Source of the DNA: Cymodocea nodosa
Taxonomy: Eukaryota > Streptophyta > Magnoliopsida > Alismatales > Cymodoceaceae
Assembly (NCBI GenBank): GCA_036874045.1
Contig: JAZBRI010000011.1
Location: 5,704,001-5,768,000, forward strand
Direction of reading: 5' to 3'
Length of the DNA: 64,000 bases
Below, in pieces: positions 2,063-54,017 of the stretch (position 1 is its first letter; each line of letters starts with the position of its first letter). The notes beneath the pieces are model-generated. The model saw only the letters and a program-made list of their open reading frames with translations, ran no database searches and was not told the origin of the DNA. A program made the position numbers and the translations under genes.

Positions 2063-2277
2063 CATTGCATCTAAGTTAGGAGGTAGATTGTGTTGTTGTT
2101 GTACTTGATATAAAGAGTTGTGTTGTTGTGGTTGGTGTTGTGTCAAACTGTTGTTGTTACTGTTGTTGATGCATAGACTGTTATTTTTGCAAATCTTTAA
2201 TACTGAAAGCTCTCATGCCTTTAGTTTCAAAGGGCCAGTCAGATAAAGTTAATTGGTTTGCAAGAATTCTACATACA
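2063..2277 (-). pseudogene. Element C: C-terminal end of the aORF
   Basis: Homologous to 4510-4770 of element A, including the stretch encoding the residues after KLFYGD and the following CAA/TTG-rich polyglutamine region. It is joined, across element A, to the rest of C's aORF at 15532 onward. The target ATACA is present on both sides of A (2273-2277 and 15532-15536). The coding frame is decayed. Left of about 2062 similarity to A stops abruptly, so C's 3' end was lost by deletion or replaced. Confidence 0.65.
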
Positions 2278-2732
2278 TGTAGGATCGTATGGCTACACAA
2301 GAGGGGGGTGAATTGTGTATTTTTAATATTTTCTGAAATATAATTGAAACTTTAAAACTCAAAAATAAGTTGAGACATTGTTTTCATAAAATCATTTTTA
2401 TTCAAGGTTTCAATTACAATATACAATTCAATTCTCCTCAGAAATTGTAGATGCAATTATATCTCGATACCATGTATCATCTAAACAATTTCATAACTAC
2501 AAACAGAGAAAACTAATTTGCGGAATTTAAAACTTTTCTCCCTGTTTGAGATCTTTCTTCTTCTTCTTTTTCTTCTTCAGCAATTCTTCAATGACAAATA
2601 TCTTGTCCTTTCATGCTTCACCGAATTTGCTTTCTTCTGATACTTCAAATCTTCAGTGACGAAAATCTTACCTTTTTATGCTTCATTGAACTTTTTTCCA
2701 CTTGAGAGATTTTTCCTGAAGAGGTGTTTTTG

Positions 2733-2906
2733 ATCCCTGAAAAAGATTTTTCTTTTGGTGTGCAGGGATGGTTTAACCCTTGAAAAGATTTTTCTTTTTG
2801 GTGTGCAAGGATGGTTTGATCCTTGAAAAGATTTTTCTTTTTGGTGTGCAAGGATGGTTTAATCCTTGAAAAGATTTTTCTTTTTGGTGTGCAAGGATGG
2901 TTTGAT
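2733..2906 (-). repeat. 43-bp tandem repeat inside the LTR (4 copies)
   Basis: The unit beginning CCTTGAAAAGATTTTTC recurs at 2778, 2821 and 2864, with a more diverged first copy from about 2733. The spacing is exactly 43 bp. The 5' LTR of A has the same array at about 14326-14500. The solo LTR has about two copies (59020-59100) and C's LTR one (about 55455-55490). It lies downstream of the TATA box and so would be in the transcript leader. Because 43 is not a multiple of three, the short ORFs it produces are not genes. Confidence 0.85.
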
Positions 2907-3229
2907 CAACGAGAATTCTATGCCTTTTGTACTGTATCTTCATTTCATGCATATCCTTCACGTTTAACCACTACCAGTTTTCCACTTCTCCACGTCTTTT
3001 CTTTTTCCTTCATCGAAACACACACGTTCTAACCCACGTTTATATTTCGAATTTTCTTTAATCATCAATCCTAGATCTCTGAAAAATTTCCTGAAAATAA
3101 ACTTTCTTGTCTAAAAATATTTCATCAATGTAATAAGAAGTCGTTACTTTAATGTTAACTAAACGAGTAACACAAGTATATATATATAACTTAACGTTTC
3201 TAACTTAACGAGTTCACCATGTGCTATTT

Positions 3230-3634
3230 CACGTGACAAGTACTGTAGCTAACCCAACGAACTAAGTCTGTGGTGTTATGCTATCTCAACGAACCATCTC
3301 CGTTGTGTTATGATAACTCAACGAACCAATAATAAACAAATGTTTTTAAAATAAGAATTTTACCACGTGCAAAAATAACAACTTAAGTTTATAACACTAA
3401 CCTAACGCATTGCCTTAGTGTTTAATATAGCAACTCAACGCGTTTAGTTATGTTAACTTAACAAGTTAAACATGTGCACCTCACGTGATACAATACAACA
3501 TTCATAACTTATAATTTCACCACGTGTATAACACTAACTTAATGAGTTCGTCTCTTCTTTTACTCACTAACTTAACGAGTTATCACGTGACCTATTTTAA
3601 CCTTTAAGCCTCTAACTTAACGAGTTCTCACGTG
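3230..3634 (-). promoter_or_regulatory. Cluster of six G-boxes (CACGTG) in U3 of the A LTR
   Basis: CACGTG occurs at 3230, 3364, 3482, 3521, 3584 and 3629, and at the matching places in the 5' LTR (14816, 14950, 15068, 15107, 15170, 15215). G-boxes are known binding sites of plant bZIP and bHLH factors in ABA and light responses. Here they alternate with AACTCGTTAAGTTA-type half-sites. Control of the LTR promoter by such factors is inferred from sequence only. Confidence 0.6.
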
Positions 3635-3945
3635 ACCTCTATACAAACAAAACTCTAACTTAACGAGTTGTCTAAACGTGCACTGTTCATGATATAGAAG
3701 ATATAACATTAAAACATATCATGCTTTTCAATAAAAACACACGTTAACTTAACGTTTAGCTAAATGAGAAATTAATGCAACGAAACGACTAGTTATTAAC
3801 TTCAGATCCAATACAGACAAGTATTTATATCAGTAAGCTTTTCTGTATTAATTGATGATTTTAATTTCTTTTCACAAGCAATAGTAATTGAGCAAATATG
3901 ATTATTTTCATTCAGCACACATCATCAAAACAAAAATACTCAACA

Positions 3946-4292
3946 ATCTTCCCCTTTTCGATGATGACAAAACCATATTAAATCAATTATGAAATATGTT
4001 TAACTCAACAAAGCACCTTCATTGGGTTAACTTTTAATTCAACAAACTTGTTTGTTGACTTAAGTTCACTTAAGCTTATTTCTATTGTTTGTGTAAAATT
4101 CCACTCTTAGACATAAAACTTTCAGATGTCAATAATTATATAAGTATCAGTTTTCTAATTATCATCTATCAGATTACAATAACCATTTAAATAGCATCTC
4201 TTTTTATAATATATATATGCAATTAAGATCATAATCATCTTTTTATAATATTTCTCCCCCTTTTTGTCATTAATCAAAAAGATAATTACAGA

Positions 4293-4330
<38 letters not shown>

Positions 4331-4460
4331 TATAATTACAACAACTCTTTCTGTAAACAAGAATAATAATTGAAGATATTTACAGAAAAATGTATTATTC
4401 AATCAAATCAAACAAGTAATACAAACATTACACTTTATATTCAGAAACAAACAAAAACAG
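3946..4460 (-). other. Element A: polypurine tracts and spacer before the 3' LTR
   Basis: Directly next to the LTR, 3946-3959 reads CGAAAAGGGGAAGAT in sense, the likely primer for plus-strand DNA synthesis. A second purine tract (sense AAAAAGGGGGAGAAA) lies at 4254-4268. Multiple tracts are a Sirevirus trait. A perfect (AT)n microsatellite fills about 4296-4326. The rest is AT-rich without an ORF. Confidence 0.7.
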
Positions 4461-6726
4461 TTATTGACCCCTCCTAAGTATATCACTTATAGCATTACAT
4501 ATTTTATCTCCTAGATGCCTAATATCATTTCTGATGTCGTTAAGCACTACATCTAAGTCAGGAGGTAGCTGGGTTTGCTGTTCTGCTTGAACTGAATAAC
4601 TTTGTTGTTGTTGTTGTATATGGTCTGTATCAGGTTGTTGTTGTTGTTGTCATTGAGGTTTATGCATGGTCTAGAATTTTTGCAAATCTTTGACACTAAA
4701 TGCTCTCATGCCTTTAGTTTCAGAGGGCCAGTCAGATAAAGTCAATTGGCTTGCAAGGATTCTACATACAGCATCACCATAAAATAACTTTGAACTCATA
4801 TGCTGTAGTTGAGACAAAAACATCAAACCAATTTATTTGAATTCTATTCAGTAGGCCATAAGTTGCATACAAACAGCTTCTACTGACTTCCAAATTATGT
4901 CCAACTCTCTGAAATAAATTTGCATGCAATATATTTGCAATAAATCTTGCCTCTGCATTCAGATTTTCCATTAATCTCATTTCAGAATATACATCTGGAA
5001 TTTTTGATAAAGACTGAATGTTCCATTCCAATTGTCTTATTATGTCAAATCTGTTGGTAACAACAACACCTTCATTCTTTAATCCTAAAACTTCAAAAAT
5101 TAACTCAGGAGACAACATAAACTCCTGTTCATTTATTTGAGTTTTCAGAAAATTTCCATTCTTATCCAGATTGCTATAAAAAGCTGCAATAAGCTCTGTG
5201 TATTGCTTCTATTTCGTTCCTACTAGCAAGAATTTACTGAGGCCTTGAAACTCAAACAGATCTCTTATTTCCATCAAATTTCTGAATTTTATTGGACGAG
5301 CATGGAGAATCTGACATGTAATCAGATTATTGTATATCTGCAATGCTTCTTCATATCTAAAATGAATTGCATTACCTTGAATTTTTAATATTGTACACAA
5401 AGAAGGTGATACCTGAAACCGTGATTCAGAGTTTAATTTATCTTTAGGAACCTCTTCTTCAAATTGAATGTCATGTTGTTCCTCTTCCAAAATATTATCT
5501 TGAAGCTGCTTAGGTAAGCTTGATTCTTCACCTTCAACAGTGTTAGGAACATTGTCAATATGCTCAACATTCATCTGTTCAGTCTCTATAGAATGTTCAG
5601 AGTACAATTTTTCCACAAATTCTACAGCCGGTGTATTTGTCTGTAATTGTTCATTTTGTACAACAGATAATTCCATTGATTCATGTTGTGAATTCTCAGA
5701 CTCTACTTCTATAGATTCTGTAGAAGGCTGGTTAACTTTTAGCTCTTCTGGAGTCTTAACAATTTCAATATCTGCTACTCGAGACAATTCAGCCTTTGAA
5801 CTAGTTACTGCTTCAACATTGTCAATTATATTTGCAATAACTTGTTCAATGTCAGGTGCCTGATGCTCTGATTTGTCAATTTCTACATCATCAAGACTTG
5901 TACTAATAGAAAAACTTGAGCTCATATTTGACTTGGATTTCTTCTCAAGTTTTCTAGCAAGGGAAAATAAAGTCTCATTATCTTCATCAGTTTCAGTGTG
6001 TTCAGAACTAATGAGTTTATCAGATGCACAATAAGGTACAGTGTCTAGACATACATTGTCCTTTGGAAATAAATTTTCATCTGATTTTCCTTTTTCAATA
6101 GACTTTGTTTCTTTAGACATAATTTTTCTGACTTTCTTTCTTCTATAACATATTTGTTTCTCCTTTTCAAGTATTGCTGTTTTCTTTTCATATTGCTCCA
6201 TAAAAGTTTTCTGCTTTAATTCTTTTAAGGTACTTTCTATTGCAACGGCCTTTCGAAGACTGTCAACTTTTGTTTTGTTTACAGCAATATCTAATTCTAC
6301 TTGTTTTGAATATAAAGGAGTAGGGATAGTTGATTCATGCTCTTCATCAAATGCATGTAATCTTGTACCATTTATAGGAGTTTGAGGAGTTCTATTTGAT
6401 GAACCTACACCTTTTTCCAAGTATTTTGCATACTATTCCAAAAATGCAATCTCAACACATTTCATTCTATATTCTCTATCAAATTTACTACGAATACCCA
6501 TGTATGTAATATTTGCATCAGTATGTTGAAGTTCTTGTCTAACTTCATCTAATATTCCCTGAGGAAAGAAGTAATCTCTATAAAGTTTTTCTAACCTTTT
6601 GTCCACTCGAAATATTTTTTTGAACCAAGTACGTGGAACTTCATCATTCTCTATTTCTTTTCCTTTTGCATCTCTTCTGCTTTTGCCTTTTCCTCTGTCA
6701 CGACCGTTGTAGAACTTGGAGACCAT
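4461..6726 (-). pseudogene. Element A aORF (env-like extra ORF after pol)
   Basis: The ATG at 6726 is chosen because element C has an ATG at the same place (18735) and both lie about 85-90 bp below a shared TATTTAAA. From the N terminus: a basic segment (VSKFYNGRDRGKGKSRR), a helical module (DKRLEKLYRDYFFPQGILDEV), an acidic Ser/Glu-rich middle, then the conserved domain with IRDLFEFQGL, AAFYSNL, SPELIFEVLGLKNEG, NAEARFIANILHANLFQ and NRIQINW, and a polyglutamine tail. Breaks: TAG near 6430 where C has CAA, TAG near 5207 where C has TGG, a 2-nt deletion near 4815, and stops in the tail. No clear signal peptide or membrane segment is seen, so 'env-like' describes position only. Confidence 0.75.
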
Positions 6727-6808
6727 CGTCGTAGGTTGTAACAGCAACAAGCGGGAAAGATTTTCCTGACAAGGTTTACAAATAACCTAAGTCCCCTTGT
6801 AATAAGTG

Positions 6809-6950
6809 TTTAAATAGGGTTTTTAGGAGTATAACTCAACGTAAAAAGAAGTCGGGTTTAGAAATTAAATAACTATTGAATAAAGTTAATTCAATCAAGG
6901 TACTCGAAATATTCAAGTATAGCTCGTTGAGTTAACCAACCTAACGAGTA
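6809..6950 (-). promoter_or_regulatory. Element A: candidate internal promoter for the aORF
   Basis: The sense sequence CCCTATTTAAACACTTATTA (TATA core 6809-6816) lies about 85 bp upstream of the aORF ATG. About 110 bp further upstream, 6922-6950 is an inverted pair of the LTR half-site (CTCGTTGAGTTA facing CTAACGAG). Element C keeps both the TATA-like box (18819-18826) and the dyad (18931-18958) at matching distances. Promoter function is inferred from conservation and layout. Confidence 0.5.
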
Positions 6951-8310
6951 AAATGTTGTCTAAAGGCAGTTTTACACGTTACCTTATCTAACATAACATC
7001 TAGTTAGTACACAAACAAGTTTAGGATGCTTCCAACCGAAACCTTCCAAAAACAACACACATGCTAAACTTAACATTATCTTGAGAACATTTTAAACTGT
7101 TTGAACATTTTGTCTTTTGAATCTAGAATAGTTTATTTGTCTTTTTAAATTATTTCATCAAGATTTTAAGAGGACATTAATTCAGATTAACTAAGATTTG
7201 TATTCTAAATTATATTAATCTGTTTTTGACATTGTTAATCCTCCCCCTACAAATATACTTCAAATATATTCAATCAAAATACAAAATATACTTGTAGTGA
7301 TAATAGATGTTAAGTATAACTATACTTTTACATTTTCTTTTCAAAGACTTTCGTTATCCTGACATCATCAAAAATGATTTCCAGAATCAATTCCTACTAT
7401 ATATGAATCAAAACACAACTTTGAACTCAATTCGATTAATTCAAGGAGAATAAAAGAATGTATCTCAAATAAACTTTTTCAAAAGTACTAATGTTGATTT
7501 AATAAATCAGTGGTCATATTGGTATAAACTATATGCGATTCAAAGATATCTGTAATTAATAAAACAACTTTTTCTTTTCAAAATAGTAAATATTGATAAT
7601 TTTCTTTAAAAGTTAGTTTGAAAAGCTTGAATCATCCAAGAGCTTTCTAATGTACCCGTGTAATGAGCTTTCAGTCAACAATCTTAGATCTGATCAGGAA
7701 CTTAGGTTGCCAGATTTAAAGAATCCTTTTTTAAGACAACAATCCGTACATACCTATCTACTCAAATATAAAAGGCTCGTGATCAAATTGATCAATAAAC
7801 TCTCAAAGATTTTCACTTTGTAAACACTATTCATTTTAAGCATAGTATATATGTATTCCATTTAATACAGATGCAATAAAACACAAATCTCATACAATTT
7901 TTACTTCTATGATTGTACTGAGAATATGAATCAGTTTCAATAAGCTTATACTTTTGATTAACAGTTTAAGATGAGTTACATATAACTTATTCTACAAGTT
8001 TAATCAACTAAGTCAAATTTATACATGATCATATGCATTTTCCTTGATTCAAAGAAAACATTTAATCAAAATTTCAGAATGTCAGAAGTATTTAATGTTT
8101 TTCATTTACACTTCCACTTAAAATTGTAAAAACTATTAAAATTGATAAACTACTTAAAAATCAATAAGATACTACTATGATTTTACAATAAATACATAGT
8201 ATCTTAAGCAGTTTAGATATTACTTTAGATATTTATAATAAGTATATAATATCTATGAGGTGAACAATATCATCAATAATATTTATCTTTTTATGTGGAG
8301 TTTAAGTATT
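6951..8310 (-). other. Element A: non-coding spacer between RNase H and the aORF promoter
   Basis: AT-rich, no ORF. A purine tract (sense TTGTAGGGGGAGGATTAAC) lies at about 7235-7256 and is conserved in C near 19255-19270, again like the repeated polypurine motifs of Sireviruses. No other feature seen. Confidence 0.6.
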
Positions 8311-9746
8311 TTACACATCACATAGCCTACAAATACCTAAATTTAATCTAATGTTGCAGAATGTATTTTCGTTTAGAGGTTTTGTAAATATATCAGCTAA
8401 TTGATTTTTACTAGACACAAATTCTAATTTAATTTTTCCTTTAATTACGTTATCTCTTAGAAAATGATGTCTAACCTTTATATGTTTTGCTCTTGAATGT
8501 AATACAGGATTTTTAGAAAGATTTATTGCAGAACTACTATCACAATAAATCTCAGTTGTATCATAAGATAATCCAAAATCTTCTAAAGTTTGCCTTATCC
8601 ACAGAATCTGAGTGCAACACAATGCAACAATAACATATTCAGCTTCTGTAGTAGAAAGTGCTACACAATTTTGCTTTTTACTAAACCATGACACCAAATT
8701 ATTTCCCAATAATTGACATGTGCACTAGTACTGTTTCTATCAGATTTAGATTCTGCATAATCAACATCAGTATATCCTATAAGATTTATTGAACTATCCT
8801 TAGAATAATACAGTCCGAAATTTTTAGTTCCTTGTATATATCTAAATATTCTTTTAACTGCAATTAAGTGTGATTCTTTAGGATTAGATTGAAATCTAGC
8901 ACAAACACACACACCAAACATAATATCAGGTCTACTAGCAGTCAAATAAAGTAAAGAACCAATCATACTTCTGTATTTTCTTTGATCTATAGATTTTCCT
9001 ATGTCATCAATATCTAACTTTAAAGTAGTACTCATAGGAGTTCCTCAAATCCTTGTATTATTAAAATTAAATTTCTTAAGCATTTCATCTACATATTTTT
9101 CCTGATTTAAAAATATGCCTTTATCCATTTGCTTAATTTGAAGTCCTAGAAAATATGAAAGTTCTCCTATCATACTCATTTCAAACTGATTAGTCATCTC
9201 TTCAGAGAATATTTCTATCAACTTATCAAAGGTTGCTCCAAAGATTATATCATCCATGTATATTTGAACAACAATCTAATCTTTACCATCTCTCTTAATA
9301 AATAGAGTATGATCCACTTTTCCCATGATATAGCCTTTTTCTATTAAAAATGTAGACAATCTTTCATACCATGATCTTGGTGCTTGCTTCAAACCATATA
9401 AGGCTTTCTTCAATTTATACACAAAGTCAGGATTTTTAATATCTTCAAATCCAGGTGGTTGTTTTGCATAGACTTCTTCATTAATTAAACCATTTAGAAA
9501 TGCACTATTTACATCCATTTGATATAATTTAAAATCCATATAACAAGCATAGGCCAATAATATTCTAATACTTTCTAACCTAGCCATAGGAGCAAATGTT
9601 TCATCAAAATCTAATCCTTCTTCCTGTGAATACCCTTATGCAACTAATCTAGCTTTATTCCTTATAATTTGACCAGTTTCGTTAGTTTTGTTTCTAAAGA
9701 TCCACATTGTACCTATTATGGACTGATTTTCTAGTGGAGAGACTAA
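8311..9746 (-). pseudogene. Element A: reverse transcriptase and RNase H
   Basis: Copia-type RT (RVT_2) followed by RNase H. RT motifs: [31 protein letters not shown], the catalytic YMDD of IYMDDIIFGAT, and [20 protein letters not shown]. RNase H motifs: ALSTTEAEYV, IYCDSSSAINLSKNP, HSRAKHIKVRHHFLRD and QLADIFTKPL. Stops interrupt it (for example TGA near 9049 where C has CGA), and a frameshift near 8700 separates the GYTD part from the ALSTTEAEY part. It polymerises element cDNA and removes RNA from RNA:DNA hybrids. The product ends at 8311. Confidence 0.88.
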
Positions 9747-11413
9747 TTACCATACATCATTTCTGATGAATTGATTTAGTTCTTCTTGCATTGCCACTAT
9801 CCAATTTTCATCAAATAATGCTTCTTGTATATTCCTTGGTTCCACCATAGAAAGAAACATACACATACTATTTAAATTTACTGAAGCTCTAGTTTTAACT
9901 CCCTCATTAATATTACCAATGACTTGAGTAATGGGATGTGATGAAGAATAACGCCAATTTCTCTGATTTTCCTCAATATTCTCATCATCATCTGAAAGTC
10001 CATCACTTTCATCATTAGTTTGATCATTTAAGTTCATATTTTTGATTTTTTCAAATAAATCATCAATCTCTCTATTGATCTCTAACTCATTTGGAAAATT
10101 GATCATATCATCATTATCAACATTAGATTGAGATTCTCTAAGAGAATTTTCATTGAAGCTTACATGGAGGGTTTCTTCAATAGTCCTAGAAGTCTTGTTA
10201 TATACTCTATAGGCTTTACTTCTAGTAGAATAACCTACAAAAATTTCATCATCCAATTTGGTTTGAAATTTATCCCTTTTATCCTTAGTATTAAGAATAA
10301 AACACTTGTAGCCAAATGGTTTCATATAGGAAATTTTTGGAACCCTATTAAACATAATTTCAAAAGGAGCTTTATTAACATGAGGTCTTAAATGACTTCT
10401 GTTAATAACATAACAAGCTGTATTTACTGCTTCAACCCAAAGATTTTGAGGTAACTTATGTTCATTCAACATAGTTCTGGCCATTTCTTGAAGTGATCTA
10501 TTCTTTCTCTCAACAACACCTTTTTGACACGATACTCTTGGAAAAGAAAATCTATGATCAATGCCATGCTCATTACAATAGTTATCCATTTGATCATTAT
10601 CAAATTCTGTTCCATGATCACTTCTAAGTTTTTGAATAGAGACTTTGCTCATTTTGAACAAAATTGCAAAACATTTTAAATTTTTCAAAAACTTCTGTCT
10701 TAGATGCTAGACAATATACCCAAGTGTATCTAGAGAAGTCATCTACTAAAAAAAATACATACCATTTACCACCAAGACTCATGATTCTTGTTGGTCCAAA
10801 TAGATCCATATGTATAAGTTCTAAGACTCTCTTGCTTGAAATATCAGTTTTGGATTTAAAAGAGTTTTTGTGAAGTTTACCTAACTCACATGCATCACAC
10901 AAAGTTCTTTGAGTATTTAATCTTTGGTAAACCTCTTACTAAATGTTTTCTAGATAGTTTATGTAACAGTCTCATATTTATGTGTCGAATCCTTCTATGC
11001 CATAGATATGCATCATTAGTTTCAGCTAGCAAACATGAATTTAAATCAACTACACTAGAAGGTAAAGATAAAATACATACAGAACCTTTTGTTTTAGCAA
11101 TAAACTTAATTTCATCTGTATTTTTATCAATAATTTTGCATACATTTTCTTAAAACACTACATAATATCCATTTTCAGTTAGTTTTATGACACTCAGCAA
11201 ATTAAATCCTAGGTTTTCTACATATAGTACATTCGAAATAACACAAGTAGGAGTTATTTGAACATTGTCCATACCTATGATTTTATCTTTGCTTTTGTTT
11301 CCAAATGTTACACTTCCTTTCATGGTATTTGTTAAATTTTGTAATAGACTTTTTTGTCCGGTCATGTGACTTGACGCTCCACTATCCAAAATCCATTTTG
11401 ATGTTATTTCCTC
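9747..11413 (-). pseudogene. Element A: protease, GAG-pre-integrase and integrase
   Basis: The order from 11413 down is aspartic protease (WILDSGASSHMTG), a GAG-pre-integrase zinc region (LWHRRIRHIN... FVCDACELGKLHK), and the integrase core with HMDLFGPT, RSDHGTEFDNDQM and GVVERKNRS, so the D, D and E catalytic residues are all present. Downstream lie the integrase C-terminal part (FGYKCFILNTKDKRDKF, EIFVGYSTRSKAYR) and an acidic linker. A TAA near 11152 and a 1-nt frameshift near 10655 break it; 9747 is a TAA before RT. Residue 11413 is also the proposed first base after a splice acceptor. Confidence 0.85.
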
Positions 11414-12574
11414 CTGCAACACAAATTAAGAAAAACTTTTTCTTGGTACCCAATGTTGTTGAGGACCAAGTTCATTAAATGCATATTTCTTCTTTTTGTT
11501 TAAAAATAGTTTAACATTATCATTTATATTCTTATTAGTTGTAAGTACTATTGATTTATCATTAGCTTCATACTCACATATAGCATTATTGCTTTTGCAA
11601 TCATTCTTTTTGTTTTCAGATGTAGTATAATCAAGACTAAACATATTTTTATCAGATGTTAATTTATTTTGGTCATGCTTATACATTTCAGTAAGTTCAT
11701 ACCAAGATTTTGTACTAGTATTAACATTTTCTGTACATACAAAATCTTTTTCTGCACAAGAACTTTTAGTTTTATCACATGTAGAATGAGTAATTGGTCT
11801 AATACCAGTGTATTGAATTACATGCTCAGGTTTCTGAATTTTCAGTTTACTAAAATTGTTTGAAATTTTAGAAACATTAGAAACTGAATTTCCAGAACAA
11901 GAAAAAAGATTTTTAGAAACATTTATAGTCATGTTAGAAGTACAATTTGACAAATAACATTGATTTATATTATTACTATGTGATTCATCCCTTGAAGTAC
12001 CTACTTCTACATATTTATTACCTTGTTTCATAATGAAAGGAATTTTAGTCTTAGATTTACTTGAACTGTAACTAATAAATCCTTTATTGGCTTGAGATTC
12101 AGGATATTCAGGATAATCAAATCCTAAGCCAAATTTATAAGACACCGTAGGGGTACTAGTTAGTTTGTCTAACTTAGTTTGACTTAAATTCCATTTCTCA
12201 AAGGTAGAATTTAAATCTTGCTCTCTCAGTTTTAATTTTTCTATCTATAATTCAAGTTCATTTATATTGTTTCTCAACATTTCATTTTCAGATTCTATCT
12301 TTAATTTTTCAGCATTTATATTCTGTATTTGTTCATGCAAGATACATTCATTAAATCTAAATTTTTGCAAATCTCTAGCATGATTTTCATTATCACATTT
12401 AAACTTTTCTAAAGTAGTAGACAGGAAACAATTTTCTTCTTCCATAATGGATGAAGATTTTCTAATATTCTTATTTTCTAGTTTACATACTTTAAGTTTT
12501 TGTAATAATGCATGATAAGCACATAATAATTCATCAAAGTTGAAATCTGAATGACTTTCAAGATCAGATAATAC
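11414..12574 (-). other. Element A: coiled-coil/Ser-Asn-rich region with intron-like ends (candidate exitron, 1161 bp)
   Basis: Coding-like region between gag and protease. The first part is Lys/Glu/Leu-rich and helical (LLQKLKVCKLENKNIRKSS, then KLKIESENEMLRNNINELEL); the second is Ser/Asn-rich, ending at a WVPRKSF motif. In sense it begins AAG|GTATTATC and ends TTAATTTGTGTTGCAG|GAG, good plant donor and acceptor sequences. The length is 387 codons, so removal keeps the frame. Element C lacks exactly this block (junction 35696/35697). Element B has an AG|GTA at the aligned donor (42686/42687). TAG near 12243 and TAA near 11426 interrupt the unspliced frame. Confidence 0.6.
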
Positions 12575-13684
12575 CTTAAACTCATCTGCCATGAAGCACA
12601 CATGAGCAACGTCTTCTAACTCTTGTTCTCCTTCTGAATGTGAAGATTTTGATGCTGATTCCTCAGATTCAGACTCTTCAGACGTGTCATCCCAAGTGAC
12701 CTTCAAAGCCTTTTTCTTGTAAAACTTTTCCTAAGTTTTCCAAGCCGTCTTCTTCTGATTTGTCCTACTTTGCTTTTCATTTTTCCTCATAGGACAATTT
12801 GGAGAAAGATGTCCAGGTTTCTTACAGTTGTAACATACATACTTTCTAGATGAAGAATTCTTGTCATTCAATGATTTTGACGTTGAGGGTTTATCATTTT
12901 TGTTCCTTTGGTGTTTTCTTGCTTTCCATGCTTTCTTGAATTTCCTAGTCAGCAAAATCAAATCCTTGTCAGAATTAGTATATATATCAGAATCTGAATT
13001 AATTTCGAAGGCTATTTCTTTCTTCATTTTTAGTTTGTTGTGACTCAGTGATTCATTTAATTGAACTTCATAAGCTGTTAAATTTCCTATTAGTTCATTC
13101 ATAGTATAAACATTTAAATCTCGTGATTCCTCAATTGATGTTACTTTCTGAGACCATTTATAACTTAAGGATTTGAGAATTTTCCTCACCAAATCCTTCT
13201 GTTCAAAATTCTTTCCTAAACATTTTAAAGAGTTTATGATATCAAGAAATCTGGAAAACATCTCAGAAATATTTTCGTCTTCATGCATCTTAAAGAGTTC
13301 ATACTTATGAATCAACATGTTTATTTTTGTCTCTTTAACTTGAGAAGTACCTTCATGTGAAACTTCTAATGCATGCCACACCTCATAAGCAAATTTATAT
13401 GCCGATACTTTACTGAACTGTTCATAACTCAATGCACAAAATAAAATATTTAAGCCCTTAGCATTCAAAGTTTCATTTTCTTTTTCAGTAATTGTCCAAG
13501 TATTATAAGGAGTAGTTAACGGAGTATATGGTTTAGAAATCATGAACCACAATTTATGATCTATACTTTGAAGAAAAATAGTCATCCTATATTTCCAATA
13601 TTCAAAATGTATTCCATCAAATAAAGGAGGACGATTAAGATTTTGGCCTTCATATAAAGAAAAATTACCATTTCTAGTAGCCAT
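12575..13684 (-). pseudogene. Element A: gag (UBN2-type capsid and CCHC zinc knuckle)
   Basis: Starts at ATG 13684, about 185 bp below the PBS. The N-terminal part is the copia gag-polypeptide (UBN2) family: LFDGIHFEYWKYRMTIFLQS, an ALS.EQF segment, EVWHALEVSHEGTSQVK, and a long helical stretch. The zinc knuckle is CYNCKKPGHLSPNC (CX2CX4HX4C), all four ligands present, after a basic Lys/Arg/Ser-rich stretch. A TAG at 12729-12731 follows 18 codons after the knuckle; element C has TAG at the same codon. Beyond it the frame continues through LKVTWDD and a Ser/Glu-rich acidic part to VCFMADEFK at the proposed donor. It forms the virus-like particle. Confidence 0.85.
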
Positions 13685-13870
13685 TTTACCTTAAATTTTT
13701 CAACCTATTTGATTTTAAATAGTCTAAAAACTTTAAAACAACTTGAGCCTTAAATCAATAGAGTTAAACGTATACTCAGATATTAATTTTCGTTTAAAAA
13801 CAAGGAAGGTAGAATAAGCAATGATATTAAATAAGTTGGTATCGATTTTATATCAAAGATTATTAACAAA

Positions 13871-13882
13871 GCTCTAATACCA
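13871..13882 (-). other. Element A primer binding site
   Basis: In sense TGGTATTAGAGC, two bases after the 5' LTR end. It is one base off the usual TGGTATCAGAGC, which pairs with the 3' end of initiator tRNA-Met. The stretch from here to the gag ATG is a short leader without ORFs. Confidence 0.85.
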
Positions 13883-13884
13883 CT

Positions 13885-15531
13885 TGTAGGATCATATGGC
13901 TACACAAGAGGGGGGTGAATTGTGTATTTTTAATATTTTCTGAAATATAATTGAAACTTTAAAACTCAAAAATAAGTCAAGACATCATTTTTATTCAAGG
14001 TTTCAATTACAATATACAATTCAATTCTCCTTAGAAATTGTAGATGCAATTATATCTCGATACCATGTATCATCTAAACAATTTCATAACTACAAATAGA
14101 GAAAACTAATTTGTGGAATTTAAAACTTTTCTCCCTGTTTGAGATCTTTCTTCTTCTTCTTTTTCTTCTTCAGCAATTCTTCAGTGACGAATATCTTGTC
14201 TTTTCATGCTTCACCGAATTTGCTTTCTTCTGATACTTCAAATCTTCAGTAACGAAAATCTTACCTTTTTATGCTTCACTGAACTTTCTTCCACTTGAGA
14301 GATTTTTCCCGAAGAGGTGTTTTTGATCCCTAAAAAAGATTTTTCTTTTGATGTGTAGGGATGGTTTGATCCTTGAAAAGATTTTTCTTTTTGGTGTGCA
14401 AGGATGGTTTGATCCTTGAAAAGATTTTTCTTTTTGGTGTGCAAGGATGGTTTGATCCTTGAAAAGATTTTTCTTTTTGGTGTGCAAGGATGGTTTGATC
14501 AACGAGAATTCTATGCCTTTTATACTGTATCTTCATTTCATGCATATCCTTCACGTTTAACCACTACCAATTTTCCACTTCTCCACGTCTTTTCTTTTTC
14601 CTTCATCGAAACACACACGTTCTAACCCACGTTTATATTTCGAATTTTCTTTAATCATCAGTCTCTGAAAAATTTCCTGAAAATAAACTTTCTCGTCCAA
14701 AAATTTTTCATTAGTGTAATAAGAAGTCATTACTTTAATGTTAACTAAACAAGTAACACAAGTATATATATATAACTTAGCGTTTCTAACTTAACGAGTT
14801 CACCATGTGCTATTTCACGTGACAAGTACTGTAGCTAACTCAACGAACTAAGTCCGTGGTGTTATGCTATCCCAACGAACTATCTCCGTTGTGTTATGAT
14901 AACTCAACGAACTAGTAATAAACAAATGTTTTTAAAATAAGAATTTTACCACGTGCAAAAATAACAACTTAAGTTTATAACACTAACCTAACGCGTTGCC
15001 TTAGTGTTCAATATAGCAACTCAACGCATTTAGTTATGTTAACTTAACGAGTTAAACATGTGCACCTCACGTGATACAATACAACATTTGTAACTTATAA
15101 TTTCACCACGTGTATAACACTAACTTAACGAGTTCGTCTCTTCTTTTACTCACTAACTTAACAAGTTATCACGTGACCTATTTTAACCTTTAAGCCTCTA
15201 ACTTAACGAGCTCTCACGTGACCTCTATACAAACAAAACTCTAACTTAACGAGTTGTCTAAACGTGCACTGTTCATGATACAGAAGATATAACATTAAAA
15301 CATATCATGCTTTTCAATAAAAACACACGTTAACTTAACGTTTAGCTAAATGAGAAATTAATGCAACGAAATGACTAGTTATTAACTTCAGATCCAATAC
15401 AGACAAGTATTTATATCAGTAAGCTTTTCTGTATTAATTGATGATTTTAATTTCTTTTCACAAGCAATAGTAATTGAGCAAATATGATTATTTTCATTCA
15501 GCACAAATCATCAAAACAAAAATACTCAACA
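13885..15531 (-). repeat. Element A 5' LTR
   Basis: Pairs with 2278-3945; ends TGTAGGATCA and ATACTCAACA on the plus strand. Differences from the 3' LTR are scattered substitutions plus a short deletion near 13978. It carries the same U3 G-box cluster (14816-15220), half-sites, TATA box and four-copy 43-bp array. The following bases 15532-15536 repeat the ATACA target. Confidence 0.92.
14515..14526 (-). promoter_or_regulatory. TATA box of the A 5' LTR
   Basis: Sense AGTATAAAAGGC. The same box occurs in C's LTR (ATATAAAAGG, about 55514-55524) and in the solo LTR (ATATAAAAGG near 58987). It separates the G-box and half-site-rich U3 from the R/U5 part holding the 43-bp repeat. Confidence 0.6.
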
Positions 15532-16951
15532 ATACAACATCACCAAAAAATAACTTTGAATTCATATGCTATAGTTGAGAAATAAAAACATTAAACCAAT
15601 TGATTTGAATTCTATTCAGGAGGCCATAAGTTGCATATAAATAACTTCTGCTAACTTCTAGATTATGTCTGACTCTCTGAAATAAATTAGTATGTAGAAT
15701 ATTTGCAATAAACCTTGCCTCTACATTTAGATTTTCCATTAATCTCATTTCTGTATATACACCTGGAATCTATGATAACAACGAAATGTTCCATTCAAGC
15801 TGTCTAACAATGTCAAATCTGTTAGTAATAACAACACCTTCATTCTGTAGTCCTAAAACTTCAAAAAATCAATTCAAGAGATAAGGTGAACTCCTGTTGA
15901 GTTATTTGAGTTGTCAATATATTGTTATTCTTGACTAGATTGCTGTAAAAAACTGCAATAAGCTCTTTGTATTGCTTCCATTTTGTTCCAATTGGCAAGA
16001 ATTGCATTAAGCCTTGAAACTCAAATAGATCTCTTATTTCCAATAAATTTCTAAACTTTATTGGTTAAGCATGTAGAATCTAACATGAAATCAAATTATT
16101 GTATTTCTACAATGTTTCCTTAGATCTAAAATAAATTGAATTTCCTTGAATGTTTATTATTCTATACAAAGAAGTTGATACCTAAAGCCTTGATTCTGAA
16201 TTTAATTCATCTTTAGGAATCTCTTCTTCGAAATGAATGTCATTGTGTTCCTCTATCAAAAGATTTTCTTGAAGCTGCTCTGGTAAGCTTGATTCTTCAA
16301 CTTCAATAGAGTAAGGAACATTTGCAATATTTGTTACATCCATTTGTTCGGTTTCTACAGAGTGTTCAAAGTTCAAATTTTCCACAAATTCAACAGCCTG
16401 CATATCTATCTGTAATTCTTTAGTTTCTACAACAAATATTTCCATTTGTACATGCTGTGAATTCTCAAACTCTAGTTTTATAGATTCTGAAATAGGTTGA
16501 TCAATATTAAGTTCTTCTAGAGTCTTATCTTTTTCAATAGTTACCACTCTAGACAATCCAACCTCTGAACTAATTATTGCCTCAATATTTTCAAGCACAT
16601 ATGCAATAACTTGTTCAATATCAGTTGTCTAATGCTCTGATTTTTCAATTTCCCTATCATTAGGGCTTGAAACAATAGAAAAACTTGAACTAATTTGTTT
16701 CTTTGATTTCTTTTCAAGTTTTCTAGAAAAAGAGAATAGAGTCACATTATCATCATCAGTTTCAGTGTGTTTCTGAATTGATGAGCTTATCAGATGCACT
16801 ATAAGGTACAATGTCTAGACATACATTGTCTGTTGGAATTAACTCATCATCTGATTTTTCTTTTTCAACTAAAGTTGTTTCTTTAGAAACAATCTCTTTT
16901 TGCTTCATTTTTCTTACTCTCTTTCTCTTGTAACAAGTCAATTGCTCTTCT
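15532..16951 (-). pseudogene. Element C: middle and conserved domain of the aORF
   Basis: Homologue of 4774-6170 of element A. Readable blocks include EIRDLFEFQGL, GTKWKQYKELIAVFYSNL, and an acidic Ser/Glu/Ile-rich middle with SVETEQMDV and LPEQLQENLL. C keeps TGG where A has TAG in the GTKWKQ block. Stops and frameshifts divide it into three or more fragments. It is bounded by element A on the left and, at the duplicated target CTTCT (16947-16951), by a solo LTR on the right. Confidence 0.75.
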
Positions 16952-18958: not shown

Positions 18959-19344
18959 AAAACACTGTCTAGAGGTAGTTTTACACGTTACCTTACATAA
19001 CATAACGTCTAATTAGCATACTTAACAATAATTCAGATGTTTTCAACTGAAAGCTTCCGATAACAACAGACAAGCTAAAAGTAACTTAAATAACCATTAT
19101 CTTGAGAACATTCTAAACTATTCTAATATTCCTTTTATGAACCTAAAATAGTTTGTTTGTCTATTAATTTTTTTCATCAAGATCTTAAGAGGACTAAACT
19201 CAGATTAGCTAAGATCTATATTCTGAATGATATTAATCTGTTTTTGGACATTGTAATTCCTCCCCCTACAAATATACTTCAAATATATTCAATAACACAC
19301 AAAATATACTTGTATAAAGTAGGTGCTACTTATAACTATTCTTT
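18959..19344 (-). other. Element C: spacer before the aORF promoter
   Basis: Homologous to 6960-7340 of element A, including the purine tract (sense TTGTAGGGGGAGGAATTAC near 19255-19272). It has no ORF. It is joined directly to an RNase H fragment because about 1.07 kb present in A is missing here. Confidence 0.6.
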
Positions 19345-19507
19345 AATTTTTACTAGACATAAATCCTAATTTAATTTTTACTAGACACAAATCCTAATTT
19401 AATTTTTCCTTTAATTACGTTATCTCTTAGAAAATGATGTCTAACCTCTATATGTTTAGCTCTAGAATGTAATACAGGATTTTTGGAAAGATTTATTGTA
19501 GAACTAC
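19345..19507 (-). pseudogene. Element C: RNase H C-terminal fragment
   Basis: Encodes the STINLSKNP, HSRAKHIEVRHHFLRDN and FVSSKN motifs, then stops; the QLADIFTKPL end is deleted. A 28-bp direct duplication (19345-19372 and 19373-19400) lies at the deletion junction. The other side of the gene continues at 27327, across gypsy element D. Confidence 0.7.
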
Positions 19508-21728
19508 TGTAAAGTTAAGATTTGTGCATTTTATGATATGTTAAAGCATGCATTTTATGGATTTCAATTGCATATCACATGATATTTATATAAGATTACA
19601 TGAAAACTATATTTTTAGGCTATGCATGTTTTTATGTATTAAAATTTAATTAATGCACAAATTTACTTTTAATAAAATTAATGTCAAGTTACTAGCCTAT
19701 ATGTAGACACTTAGTTCTTGGGAATAAACCATTTCTCACACATTTCAATTGCACACATGCATGACGTAAGTGTTATATATACTTTTAAATTGAATATTAT
19801 TATTAACAGAAATCATTGGCATGATGTAAATAATAAGTCCCATTTTATTCATGGTTAAAATCAAGATCTAATATCAATTTTTATTACATCTATTTTATGT
19901 TCTTGTTATGTGCTAAGTATTCTCCAAGTTTCATTTTAATAGGTGGCATCTATTGGAGCTTAAAAGATGAATTAATCTTCACCATTGGATGGAGATCTTA
20001 AATCATATATGGCTGGATTAATCCCAGCCATTGGATCAAAACTTACACTTAATAAAAAGGACCATGATCATCCATGCAAGGAATCTCTCCATTTCGGGCA
20101 ACTCCATTCATGCAACGGCTGCAGCCGTTTCTTCCATTCCAATGCTGAGAGTGGAGGTGGACAATCGTTTCCAGCAATTCTCCATCATTCCTAGCAACCT
20201 CCCTTCTCTTCCAAGGACGTGGACCAGCTAGTTCCCCAAGAAAGGTGAGCATTTTTGCATCTTCCTCCTCCATTGAAGATACTTTCTCCTCTTTCAGGGC
20301 GGAGTCTTAGGCATAACAAGCTTCACGGGTGGTTTTACGGTGGATTGGTGGAGAGAAGCCATGCCGGAGCATTCAAAAGCAAGGAAGGATGTGTTTTACA
20401 GTGGACGGTGAATAGGGAGCATCTTCTTGGCTCAAGACAGCACAAGTTTGTTGCTTTGGAGGCTTAAGGACGTGCAACTCACTTCTTCCTTTGCATACCT
20501 AGGCAGATCCCTTCAAAAACACAATCCACGAGTGGTGATAGTCTTGCAAAGAGTCAATTGAAGTGGTATACAACCAAATAGGAAGCATATGCGAGGAAAC
20601 AAGTGAAGACTTTACAGTAAAAACTAGAGAGGAGAGATCCTCATACATAGTTCCTTACTGCTATTGCATATTTGTATGAGTGTTGGATGTATGTGTTGAT
20701 ATATAGAATTCCATGTTTGTTTTATTTATTTACTAGCTTATTTTTAGATTTCAGAAGTTATTTAGATACTGGATGATGTTTAATGTGATTTTTCAATGTT
20801 TATATGTGAATACTATAATCATCAATCGAGTGTTTGAAGAAATAGTTGTGTATATAAATGCAGAAATTCGTGTATAGAGTTTTTATCTGTTTTGTTTAAT
20901 TGATTTCTATCAGCTCCAATGATGGTTTTGATCGAATCTTGATGCAATCTCATATGGTTTTAAGTCTACTTTCCAATGGATGTCATTTCATAATTTTTGG
21001 ATGTTGTTTGAGTGGTTTTCACGAATTAATTCTCAACAGGTGCATCTGACCTAGAATGCAGGTGCACATAGAGATTTTGTGCGTTTTTTTGATCATTGAT
21101 TTCTTTGAGCATAGATTGAGTTTTCATGATCTATAAATTGGGTTTTCAAGATGAAGAAGTCAGTTTGCGATGAGATTTTATTTCACACCATTTCGTAAAG
21201 ATTACACAAAGTCTTGTAAAGACATGTGTTTTGTGATTCGATATCCGCGTTTTATGCTCTCTTGGTAGATTTGATGTCAATAACTCTTGGGTTTGAATTA
21301 GATCAGGAAATTATGCTAGATTTTAGATATTTAAAAATCCTTTTCAAATTGTATTTTTACGTGAATTTTCAGTGTATATTTTGGAAGGAATACGTTTTAC
21401 AAGTGGAAGCCATTTCTATAATTTCAAGAGCTATAATAGAGTTATAGGTGAGATTGTTTTGGAGTTGATTTTTGTATGTATATTCGTGTATTTGTCCCAA
21501 TTTAACTTTTAACCTTAAGTCTAACCATTGTTTAAATAAATTAAGATGCAAAGAAAGTTTTACAGTAGGATATTAATCAAACAATCAATCTAATAAACGT
21601 CATTTAGACATACTCCCTGTGGAAATGACCCGTACTTGCACTACTTAATACAATAAGGCACCATGTGCTTGCGGTTAAATTATAAATGTAAAACTTGTGC
21701 TTTTAATGACACATGTTTCAACCTTACA
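19508..21728 (+). repeat. Element D 5' LTR
   Basis: Begins TGTAAAGTTAAG and ends TTCAACCTTACA; pairs with 25116-27326 along its whole length. Small ORFs near 19985-20470 recur in the other LTR and are not genes. A stretch near 21610-21675 (CTCCCTGTGGAAATGACC, GTACTTGCAC) resembles the U5-like part of repeat F3. Confidence 0.88.
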
Positions 21729-21734
21729 AGTTTT

Positions 21735-21752
21735 TGGCACTGTTGCTGGGGA
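21735..21752 (+). other. Element D primer binding site
   Basis: TGGCACTGTTGCTGGGGA, six bases after the LTR. Athila/Tat-type elements usually have TGGCGCCGTTGCCGGGGA here; the three differences are all C/G to T/A changes, which fits decay of methylated cytosines. Confidence 0.75.
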
Positions 21753-23180: not shown

Positions 23181-23933
23181 TTGAATGCCATTATAGATGA
23201 TTATTTAGATTACAATATGGATGAAGTTAATTTTGATTTGACACCTACTTGCTCTAAATGTAAATTGAACAATCATGTTGATGCTGATTGCCCCTTCTAT
23301 ATGTTAAATGACGTAGGTGCATGTTCTGATTCTAATGTTAGTTCATCTCTATCAAGTTTAAATGTTAATGCTGATGTTTACGACACTAGTGGTTATAGTT
23401 ATGAAACCAAGGTGGAAAAGTCTATAGGTAGTAACCCTTATGGTGAGCCTTCAATCAATTTAGCTAAGGCAATTAATGAACTTAATGCTTCCATGGAGTT
23501 ATTAAAGTTAGCAAAAGCCTCTAGTGTCCCCATTGACATGGATGGTTATGAACATATAGATTTAGGTTCAACATCCTTTGTTGAGAATGAGTCGGTTGAA
23601 ATGTTTGTAACACTAAGGTCTGGAAGAGAGGTGAGCGCTCTTGAACGAGAAACTCCTTCTCTTGTACCGTTAGGTGTTCCTTTAGATAATGTAAACTCAT
23701 CTCAATTAGATAGAGAAATTGAGACTAATCAACCCATGGGGTTAGAAAAGGGTAAAAATATAGAAGTTGAGGTTAGTGATGTAGCACATATTTATGACTT
23801 AGATGATAACATTGGTGAGAGTGATAGTATTTTTGAATTAAATTATATAGAACCTTTAGAAAGAGATTTGGGAGAGATTATGAAACCATCTATTGTAGAG
23901 CCACCTTCTTTTGAACTAAAACCCTTGCCATAA
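23181..23933 (+). pseudogene. Element D: gag zinc-knuckle remnant and gag-protease linker
   Basis: About 250 codons. Near the start is a CX2CX4HX4C-like knuckle (CSKCKLNNHVDADC), where Asn replaces the usual Gly before His. Then a long acidic linker follows, and the motif FVTLRSGREV, typical of the border before protease in Athila/Tat elements. No capsid domain lies upstream and no protease active-site motif follows. The ATG is simply the first in the frame; the true N terminus is gone. A TAA closes the frame, but the same frame continues downstream into RT. Confidence 0.6.
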
Positions 23934-30013: not shown

Positions 30014-30015
30014 AC

Positions 30016-30027
30016 TGGTGTCAGAGC
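30016..30027 (+). other. Element E primer binding site
   Basis: TGGTGTCAGAGC, two bases after the LTR; one base from the tRNA-iMet-type TGGTATCAGAGC. Confidence 0.82.
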
Positions 30028-34701: not shown

Positions 34702-34769
34702 CCCAAGTTGGGTCTTGGTGATTCATCACCTGTTTGTGGTGAAGATTGATGAAAGACAAGGTGGAGATT

Positions 34770-35142
34770 TGTGATGCGTGTGTCTTCCATCAAGTATATG
34801 TATGTGTCATTGAATATGATTGTATTTCTTTGATAATTTGTACAGGGGCAAACTTGTCTTTTGGGTATCACCAACTATTGCCCCTATATATGTAAGGGGT
34901 CATCCACGTCTAAGGGATGTCATGCCAAACCATCCCTTGATTTCGTTCTCCCCCTTCTTTGTACCAACAACCATACAGCAAGGAATCACGATAGATTGAT
35001 CACCCGTGGATGTACCCGTGTTGGGGAACCACGTAAATTTGTTGTTCTTTGAATTCTCCACTCGCAATCCTCTTTTCCACATAGATCTCTTCTCCATGCC
35101 ACCCCTAGATGCTCCACGTTTGTTTGATCTTTCCGCACAACA
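34770..35142 (+). repeat. Element E 3' LTR with adjoining polypurine tract
   Basis: Starts TGTGATGCGTGTG after the purine-rich GAAAGACAAGGTGGAGATT (34751-34769). 373 bp, as long as the 5' LTR, with few differences. Followed by GAGTT. Confidence 0.9.
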
Positions 35143-35696
35143 GAGTTTTTATGAAGTTTACCTAACTCACATGCATCACACATGAAATCCTTTGAGTATT
35201 TAATTTTTGGTAAACCACTCACTAAATTTTGTTTAGATAATTTCTACAATAGTTTCATATTTATATTCCTAATCCTAGTATGCCAAAGATATGCATCACT
35301 AGTTTCAGCTAGTAAACATGAATTTAAATCAACTACACTAGAATGTAAAGATAAAATACATACAGAACCTTTTCTTTTAGCAATAAACTTAAGTTCATTT
35401 GTAATTTTATCAATAATTTTGCATACATTATCTTTAAACAATACATAGTATCCAGTATCAATTAGTTTTATAACACTCAGCAAATTAAATCCTAGGTTTT
35501 CTACATATAGTGCATTCGAAATAACACAAGTAGGAGTTATTTGAATATTGCCCATACCTATGATTTTATCCTTACTTTTGTTTCCAAATATTACACTTCC
35601 TCTCTTGGTATTTGTAAAATTTTTCAGTAGTCTTTTTTGTCCGATCATGTGACTTGATGCTCCACTATCTAAAATTCATTTTGATGTTGTTATCTC
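35143..35696 (-). pseudogene. Element C: protease and GAG-pre-integrase, joined directly to gag
   Basis: Motifs ILDSGASSHMIGQKRL, VIFGNKSKDKIIGMGN, VENLGFNLLSVIKL and KGSVCILSLHSSVV, then the zinc region SKDFMCDACELGKLHKN partly re-created around the E insertion. A TGA replaces Trp just before ILDSGA. The upstream border is notable: the codon GAG at 35694-35696 follows AAG at 35697-35699 directly, whereas in A the same two codons are separated by 1161 bp bounded by GT and AG. The frame stays open across the join. Confidence 0.78.
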
Positions 35697-36008
35697 CTTA
35701 GTCTCATCTGCCATGAAGCACACATAAGCAACGTCTTCTAATTCTTGTTCTTCTTCTAAATGTGATTATTTTGATGATAATTCCTTAGATTCAAACTTTT
35801 TTGACGTGTCATCCCAAGTGACCTTTAAAGCCTTTTTCTTGTAAAACTTTTTCTAAGATTTCTAAGCGGTCTTCTTCTGATTTGTCCTACTTTGCTTTTC
35901 ATTTTCCCTTATAGGACAATTTGGAGAAAGATGTCTAGGTTTCTTGTAGTTGTAACATACATACTTTCTAGATGAAGAATTCTTTTCATTTAGTGACTTT
36001 GACATTGA
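35697..36008 (-). pseudogene. Element C: gag zinc-knuckle and acidic part
   Basis: Equivalent to A's 12575-12880. The knuckle reads VCYNYKKPRHLSPNCP: the second Cys is Tyr and the Gly before His is Arg, so it cannot bind zinc normally. Two TAGs follow, one unique (Trp codon) and one at the codon where A also has TAG. Then LKVTWDD, an acidic Ser/Glu stretch and VCFMADE up to the splice-like join. Harbinger element G separates it from the gag N terminus at 54018. Confidence 0.78.
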
Positions 36009-36110
36009 GGGGGGGTTAGTGCACACAGGAATTCATGGAAAGGAAAGGAAAGTTTAAACTTTCCTTTTGTAAGTTGTTAGTGTGCATACCAATTAACGGA
36101 AAGGAATTCC
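36009..36110 (+). repeat. Left terminus of Harbinger G with a second TIR-like copy
   Basis: The outer TIR starts at 36009. An inner look-alike, GTTGTTAGTGTGCATACC, starts near 36075. Between and after them are GGAAAGGAAAGGAAAG and its mirror CTTTCC, which recur at the right end. Such subterminal repeats are often transposase binding sites. Confidence 0.65.
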
Positions 36111-41517: not shown

Positions 41518-41519
41518 AT

Positions 41520-42686: not shown

Positions 42687-43654
42687 GTATCCTCTGATCA
42701 AAATACTAACTTTGATAGTTTTGATAGATTACTTGTTGAATACAATCGATTGGCTAGAAAATATAAGAAAGTAAAAATAGAAGGAAAGAACACTAGGAAA
42801 ATGCTAGATGAATCTGAAAATAAGGTTGATTTCTGAACTCTACGTTAAATAAATTTAAAGAAGAAAATCAAAGGCATGCACAAGAAATTTTAAAGTTTAC
42901 TGCAATAGAAAGAAAATTGCATGCTAATTGTGAAAATTTGATTGCTGGTAAGAAGAAAATGACCTGTGAAATTGAAAAACTGGAACTAACTATTACTGAT
43001 TTAAATTCAGAAATTGATATGCTAAAGATTAAGGTTTGCGATCAAAAGGTTATATTAAGTAAATGGAATAATAGTCAAACTATAACAGATGAACTTAGTA
43101 GTAAAATATCAAATGTAGAAAAACATGGTATTGGTTTACATGATGCATCTTCTGAAAATTATATGTTGCATGATGGTACTGCTAAAAATAATGTCTTTAT
43201 TTCCAATACTAAGAATAGTAAGAGAAAAACTATTCCGTGTGTAATTAAAAAGAGAGAAAAATATGTGCAAGTTGATAAAATGCAGCATATAAATGATAGC
43301 ACACAATGTAAGAATGTCAAAAGACATTTTCAAAAAAAAATCAAGCTAAGTCATTTGAGAATCTTAATATTCTTGATCAATTTTCTTCATATTTAAAGAG
43401 TATCGGATATTGAAAATCAAATAATGTCAGAAATGAAAATTTCAACTCTGGTTTACATAGAGATAAATGTTCTGATAATTATAACACTAAGAGAAAAAAA
43501 CGCAAAAATAATTATCAGAAAATAGATAAGTTGAAGTCTAAAAATACAGATTATTTTGATGTGACTCTCTCTAAAATTCTTGGACCCACTCAAAAATGGG
43601 TTCCAAGAGATAAAATCTCTCTTTGACTGTTTTGTACACAAATCAAAATAGATA
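42687..43654 (+). pseudogene. Element B: coiled-coil region between gag and protease
   Basis: Counterpart of A's 11414-12574: helical Lys/Glu-rich first half (LLVEYNRLARKYKKVKIEG; KLELTITDLNSEIDMLKIKV), Asn/Ser-rich second half, ending in a KWVPRDK motif. Frameshifts fall near 42835 and in the A-run near 43335. No acceptor as clean as in A is visible, though CTGTTTTGTACAC lies near 43628. The frame of protease starts after a TAG (Trp codon) near 43650. Confidence 0.65.
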
Positions 43655-54014: not shown

Positions 54015-54017
54015 TGA

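What the first reader, a model, noticed from the sequence alone, without database searches (positions are those of the whole stretch)
11414..12574. Candidate exitron in a Sirevirus: element C equals element A minus a 1161-bp GT..AG block
Seen: in sense, A reads ...GAGTTTAAG|GTATTATC at 12575/12574 and TTAATTTGTGTTGCAG|GAGGAAATAAC at 11414/11413. C reads GAGACTAAG followed at once by GAGATAACAAC (35699-35688). Bases on both sides align without gaps, so C lacks exactly the block between the GT and AG. The block is 387 codons, so the frame from gag to protease holds with or without it. B has AG|GTA at the aligned donor. Inference: the coiled-coil region is an exonic intron; C, or its source copy, came from reverse transcription of spliced RNA. 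A chance deletion that meets GT, AG, frame and a pyrimidine-rich acceptor together is unlikely. I know of copia and BARE1 splicing but not of this arrangement.
Basis: partly seen in the sequence, partly recalled or inferred. Interest (0 to 1): 0.88.

Follow-up and report, generated by a model that had tools for sequence, protein, structure and literature searches.

The report
Spliceable gag/pol block in plant Sirevirus
One copy of a plant retrotransposon lacks exactly the piece that RNA splicing would cut out of its relative, and predicted proteins from other plants show the same join, which may be how these elements make their replication enzymes; no RNA has been examined yet.

Summary
C differs from A by one clean 1161-nt gap; one of its four equivalent placements is GT..AG (12574..11414), and gag stays in frame with protease. 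"Exitron" does not fit: in A the block ends with a stop codon (TAA 11428-11426), so unspliced RNA would give Gag alone and spliced RNA a Gag-NC|protease fusion. The acceptor scores first of 654 AGs in A's interior; a random 1161-nt deletion allows GT..AG in 30 of 6181 cases. Predicted proteins from ten named plant species carry the same join, at the place where longer relatives continue into the coil region. Passages in two papers leave Sirevirus Pol expression unresolved. Splicing would explain it, with logic opposite to copia, BARE1 and EVD and like that of Ogre. Against: no RNA was examined; many joins are gene-model predictions; C is a single copy; a 3-nt microhomology sits at the junction; B keeps the donor but has no usable acceptor. 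A chance deletion remains the main rival. The source genome could not be searched.

The parts
2278..15531 (-). element A, a copia-type LTR retrotransposon (LTRs about 2275-3947 and 13882-15533)
   Evidence: LTRs 95.8% identical; flanked by ATACA at 2273-2277 and 15532-15536 (read)
12575..13684 (-). A gag up to the donor: capsid, zinc knuckle, acidic tail ending MADEFK; one premature stop TAG with first base 12733
   Evidence: Pfam Retrotran_gag_2 and zf-CCHC; translation
11414..12574 (-). the 1161-nt GT..AG block: end of gag with its stop codon; candidate facultative intron
   Evidence: single best gap of C against A; stops TAG 12247-12245 and TAA 11428-11426
12566..12577 (-). donor AAG|GTATTATCT
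   Evidence: rank 20 of 489 GT sites in A's interior, approximate recalled matrix
11413..11433 (-). acceptor TTTCTTAATTTGTGTTGCAG|G
   Evidence: rank 1 of 654 AG sites in A's interior; rank 1 with a simpler score, narrowly
11426..11428 (-). TAA in the gag/protease frame, just upstream of the acceptor
11442..11470 (-). inverted repeat in the GPxxxWVP codons, stem-loop ending 28 nt before the last block base
11300..11413 (-). start of A protease, EEITSKWILDSGASSHMTG
35139..36011 (-). gag-protease stretch of element C, lacking the block
   Evidence: matches A 10858-11415 and 12574-12889
35696..35697 (-). junction in C, AAG|GAG
42687..43640 (+). aligned block of element B (start exact, end approximate); donor GAG|GTATCC kept, no usable acceptor
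43579..43607 (+). same stem-loop in B
43624..43626 (+). TGA in B after WVPRDKISL, at the place of A's TAA
   Evidence: read

Best explanation
The block is a facultative spliceosomal intron of a Sirevirus-like copia element. Unspliced RNA would be translated into Gag with its long tail and stop at the terminator inside the block. Some RNA would be spliced from the AG|GT just after Gag's acidic tail to the TTGCAG| just before protease, which removes the Gag tail, the gag stop and any frame difference and gives a Gag-NC|PR-IN-RT-RH reading frame. C, or a parent of C, would be a cDNA of such a spliced RNA. Shown: the gap, its edges, frames, stops, site scores, and the same join in database proteins. 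Inferred: that splicing occurs, how often, its role in Pol expression, and the origin of C.
For: Exact 1161-nt gap with a GT..AG placement in frame. Acceptor rank 1 of 654 and donor rank 20 of 489 in A's interior; 2 of 300 simulated interiors reach that acceptor score and it is first under 91 of 100 jittered matrices. A stop lies 12 nt upstream of the acceptor in A and at the matching place in B. Short Gag-tail|protease forms in 7 of 35 informative proteins of the one search that did not start from a short form (hits), and in ten named species over. In Vitis, Cajanus and a legume-like set the longer forms part from the short ones at one place near the same motif as in A and B. Other large C/A differences do not have splice edges.
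Against: No RNA evidence. Many short forms are genome annotations, whose introns may be predicted only to bridge a stop or frame change; some models use other donors or acceptors (25 of 101 are not short forms). C is one old, decayed copy. AGG microhomology at the junction. Donor of A is not strong. B lacks a usable acceptor near protease: best of 9 sites scores 0.1. Splice-site matrices were recalled from memory. The block is only modestly richer in U (32.7%) than its flanks (24.4% and 31.0%).
Confidence: 0.68

Rival explanations
1. C lost the block by an ordinary DNA deletion between two AGG triplets; the GT..AG match is coincidence.
For: 3-nt AGG microhomology at the edges; C has a second deletion of about 1 kb without splice edges, so large deletions do happen in it; 5 of 169 microhomology deletions of this length allow GT..AG.
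Against: 30 of 6181 random deletions allow GT..AG and 3 also a good acceptor end; the acceptor used is A's top-ranked one; the same join appears in proteins of other plants.
Confidence: 0.2
2. A reverse-transcriptase jump within the element's RNA made C's gap during one replication round, without splicing.
For: A jump between short repeats would look the same in one copy.
Against: Does not predict the top-ranked acceptor or the agreement with other plants.
Confidence: 0.07
3. Pol is made by frameshifting, bypass or readthrough, as suggested earlier for Sireviruses; the joins in annotated proteins are artefacts of gene prediction and C is unrelated to them.
For: Earlier suggestions quoted in PMC2829016 and PMC5009743; variable donors in some gene models.
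Against: The joins recur at one place in several species and in src and jgi proteins that bear no gene-model name (P0074, P0091, P0237-P0240), though the nature of those sets is unknown to me.
Confidence: 0.2
4. The short form is ancestral and A gained the block.
For: Only the presence/absence pattern.
Against: B, a distinct family, has a related region at the same place, and long Gag ORFs containing it occur in legume-like sets.
Confidence: 0.02

Closest known systems
Ogre intron (Ty3/gypsy, pea and Medicago; known here from passages in PMC6317226)
   Same: An intron between ORFs is removed from part of the transcripts so that the whole polyprotein can be translated.
   Different: Ty3/gypsy; [quoted passage not shown] here the block lies between Gag-NC and protease and itself encodes the end of Gag.
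EVD/EVADE (Arabidopsis Ty1/copia; passages in PMC8892269 and PMC12786077)
   Same: Ty1/copia element with a facultative intron near the gag/pol border that sets the Gag:Pol ratio.
   Different: There splicing gives a short Gag-only RNA; here splicing would give Gag-Pol.
BARE1 (barley Ty1/copia; passages in PMC3735527)
   Same: Facultative intron with AG|GT and CAG|G edges near the end of gag.
   Different: 104-nt intron whose removal shifts the frame and stops pol; opposite logic.
Sirevirus +1 gag/pol overlap with 27-nt stem motif (Gao 2003, not held; described in passages of PMC2829016 and PMC5009743)
   Same: Same place in the element, stop or frame change, nearby stem-loop.
   Different: Was read as a translational recoding site; here proposed as part of an intron.
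Exitrons (general class, recalled)
   Same: Block of coding sequence with splice edges, length a multiple of three.
   Different: In A it holds the terminal stop, so retention ends translation.

Membership tests
Sirevirus (SIRE lineage of Ty1/copia) | copia-type order GAG-PR-IN-RT | tested here: met
   Pfam: Retrotran_gag_2, zf-CCHC in A; Pol_BBD, gag_pre-integrs, rve then RVT_2 in B
Sirevirus (SIRE lineage of Ty1/copia) | large gag with a coiled-coil after the zinc knuckle | tested here: inconclusive
   a 387-codon region follows the knuckle and acidic tail; no coiled-coil predictor was run
Sirevirus (SIRE lineage of Ty1/copia) | placement of RT/IN in the SIRE clade by phylogeny | not tested
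   only database similarity
Sirevirus (SIRE lineage of Ty1/copia) | repeated polypurine tracts and CGG-CCG LTR motifs (as listed in PMC2829016) | not tested
   none
Spliceosomal intron | GT..AG edges | tested here: met
   one of four equivalent placements
Spliceosomal intron | strong 3' and usable 5' splice sites | tested here: met
   rank 1 of 654 and rank 20 of 489 with a recalled, approximate matrix; not met at B's 3' end
Spliceosomal intron | spliced RNA | not testable with these tools
   no RNA data held
Exitron | open reading frame through the retained block | tested here: not met
   TAG 12247-12245 and TAA 11428-11426 in A
copia/BARE1/EVD-type Gag-only splicing | spliced RNA encodes Gag only | tested here: not met
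   removing the block leaves gag and protease in one frame
Ogre-type splicing that joins ORFs | intron removal fuses upstream and downstream ORFs | tested here: met
   frame agreement in A and C apart from point stops; shown for sequence only, not RNA

The most novel reading that the evidence does not exclude
Sireviruses across flowering plants express Pol by alternative splicing: a conserved intron encloses the Gag tail, the gag terminator and the stem-loop so far read as a recoding signal, which would act as a control element of the 3' splice site. The share of spliced RNA would set the Pol dose, the reverse of copia, BARE1 and EVD.
Probability: 0.5. Interest if true: 0.85.

Novelty: new variant of a known kind. 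Interest (0 to 1): 0.74.

Why it matters
Passages in two papers describe pol of many Sireviruses as out of frame with gag or behind a stop, with bypass or internal entry suggested and puzzles left open. A junction with exact coordinates makes the question directly testable in existing RNA data, and would change how Gag-Pol of this group is read in genome annotation.

Tried and rejected
Searching the window's own genome for more copies: the same request was sent 18 times and never answered. Plant DNA elsewhere: viral contigs gave no relative, genome contigs one weak match at 33% in an archaeal record, plasmids 19 records below 60% identity, the best two at 33% over 86% of the query. Four papers are not held (the EVD 2017, Gao 2003, Ogre 2008 and LC8 papers). 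Block gained by A: rejected because B and other plants have it. B as a second intact example: rejected, since it lacks the acceptor and its block is frameshifted in places, so its frames say little. A trained splice-site predictor was not available.

Full report
Setting. The window has 31% GC and holds nested LTR retrotransposons. Self-comparison shows three related copia-type elements: A (minus, about 2278-15531, LTRs 95.8% alike, flanked by ATACA, read), B (plus, about 40302-52465, LTRs 94.6% alike) and C (minus), an older copy interrupted by insertions, A among them. C's gag-protease stretch is 35139-36011; 54015-56507 is probably its 5' part. In the gag and pol pieces compared, C is 89-95% identical to A. 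That the elements are Sireviruses rests on the layout and on recalled hallmarks; no phylogeny was made.

Observation. C and A differ here by one best gap of 1161 nt with four equivalent placements, one of them GT..AG. C keeps the same frame through the join apart from its own point stops. In A the block holds TAG 12247-12245 and TAA 11428-11426, the latter 12 nt before the block ends; A's gag also has a TAG upstream of the block with first base 12733, so A is not an intact copy. B has TGA at the place of A's TAA (43624-43626) and its protease is in another frame, but B's block is frameshifted in several places, so its frames carry little weight. The block thus looks like the end of gag with its terminator.

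Chance and controls. Of 6181 deletions of 1161 nt in A's interior, 30 allow GT..AG and 3 also a pyrimidine-rich YAG end (the real one included); of 169 with at least 3 nt of microhomology 5 allow GT..AG. In the aligned gag and pol pieces the other gaps of 8 nt or more are one of 12 and one of 9 nt, and a second deletion of about 1 kb (A 7328-8397, C 19344-19366) has no splice edges. With approximate plant matrices recalled from memory the acceptor is rank 1 of 654 (9.85, next 5.4) and the donor rank 20 of 489; between 13684 and 10900 they are rank 1 of 172 and 6 of 127. A simpler score also puts the acceptor first of 654, but narrowly (14.5 against 14.0). 2 of 300 simulated interiors reach 9.85; over both strands of the whole window it is rank 3 of 7384, tied with rank 2; under 100 jittered matrices it is first in 91 and at worst seventh. 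B's donor scores 3.58 (A's 2.07), but the 9 AG sites at 43560-43720 score 0.1 or less; the alignment puts a 7-nt gap in B at the acceptor. The block has 32.7% U against 24.4% and 31.0% in 500-nt flanks, a modest difference.

Other plants. The search with B's protease-integrase ORF (1447 hits, 120 listed) did not start from a short form. Of the 120, 44 hold the protease start motif, 35 of these have at least 10 aa before it, and 7 of the 35 are short forms with the Gag tail joined to protease: P0011, P0074, P0076, P0091, P0104, P0112, P0119. Of the 28 others, 11 have LQ, MQ or VQ shortly before protease, where A has TTG CAG, and 17 do not. Searches with two short forms, and so biased towards them, added 116 proteins (157 hits, 120 listed) and 55 (57 hits): 76 of 101 and 4 of 6 with enough upstream sequence are short. 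The other 25 include joins to a similar protease side from other donors (P0163, P0165, P0192), from the WVPK region (P0222, P0228, P0232) and different structures (P0213, P0215-P0219 from Ulmus); P0159 and P0188 join Gag to a different protease-side residue. Named species with short forms are Vitis vinifera, V. piasezkii, Citrus sinensis, Manihot esculenta, Fagus sylvatica, Gossypium raimondii, Theobroma cacao, Rubroshorea leprosula, Cajanus cajan and Tanacetum coccineum. Long and short forms part at one place: Vitis DLDE|VNSNFSDEDM and DLDE|GSKKDKWFLDSGC; a legume-like src set DSEE|VFSELTRDEL and DSEE|ISLAAKRTKSKMSWYLDSGC, with separate pol ORFs reading RLFLLQ|ISLAAKRT; Cajanus TI|VRDFDLESNP and TI|ECLRAKSLLWYLDSGC. 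That place is 4 to 16 residues after the xMA motif in the cases I counted, as in A (MADEFK|V) and B (MAKSSE|V). Many of these proteins are genome annotations, so their joins are predicted introns; what src and jgi proteins derive from is unknown to me.

Meaning. PMC2829016 (passages) says many Sireviruses have pol in unusual +1 frames, with bypass or internal entry suggested; PMC5009743 (passages) reports a conserved 27-nt motif able to form an 11-bp stem there and says puzzles abound. A and B have a stem in the GPxxxWVP codons (z -1.78, 10 of 200 shuffles as stable, and z -2.71, 2 of 200); pair 6 is U-A in A and A-U in B; in A it ends 28 nt before the last block base. That this is the published motif is my inference, since the primary paper is not held. 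A splice from the acidic tail to protease would remove stop, frame difference and stem together. BARE1 (passages) and EVD (passages) splice to make Gag alone; Ogre splices to join ORFs (passage).

Prior description. Ten literature searches were answered. No listed title or abstract start, and no passage that I read, describes splicing of Sirevirus gag-pol RNA. Most papers were seen as listings only, subscription papers are mostly absent from the library, and four primary papers are not held, so an earlier description cannot be excluded.

Verdict. The exitron label should give way to a facultative gag/pol intron. Origin of C from spliced RNA is likely but unproved.

Noticed in passing
window 11442-11470 (A), 43579-43607 (B): Stem-loop in the GPxxxWVP codons with one pair changed on both sides between A and B; possibly the 27-nt motif described for Sirevirus gag/pol borders.
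   Followed up: partly
window 19344-19366 (C) against 7328-8397 (A): C lacks about 1 kb around the end of RNase H, next to a short tandem duplication, without splice edges.
   Followed up: partly
window 41580-41600 (+): The top-scoring acceptor in B's interior (8.11) lies at 41597, 16 nt upstream of the gag ATG; possibly a leader intron.
   Followed up: no
window 19511-27327 and 29639-35142: Nested LTR elements inside C, with terminal repeats of about 2.2 kb (93%) and 375 bp (95%); the second holds plus-strand copia integrase and RT.
   Followed up: no
window 2729-2907 and 14322-14500: Tandem duplication of about 93 nt inside both LTRs of A.
   Followed up: no
window 62710-64000 (-): A further related copia RT (ORF 63195-63962), cut by the window end, 67.6% alike to A.
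   Followed up: no
plasmid records NZ_CP115302.1 and NZ_CP115454.1: Two 5-kb 'plasmids' of actinobacteria from rhizosphere soil match copia pol over 86% of the query at 33%; perhaps plant DNA in the assemblies.
   Followed up: no
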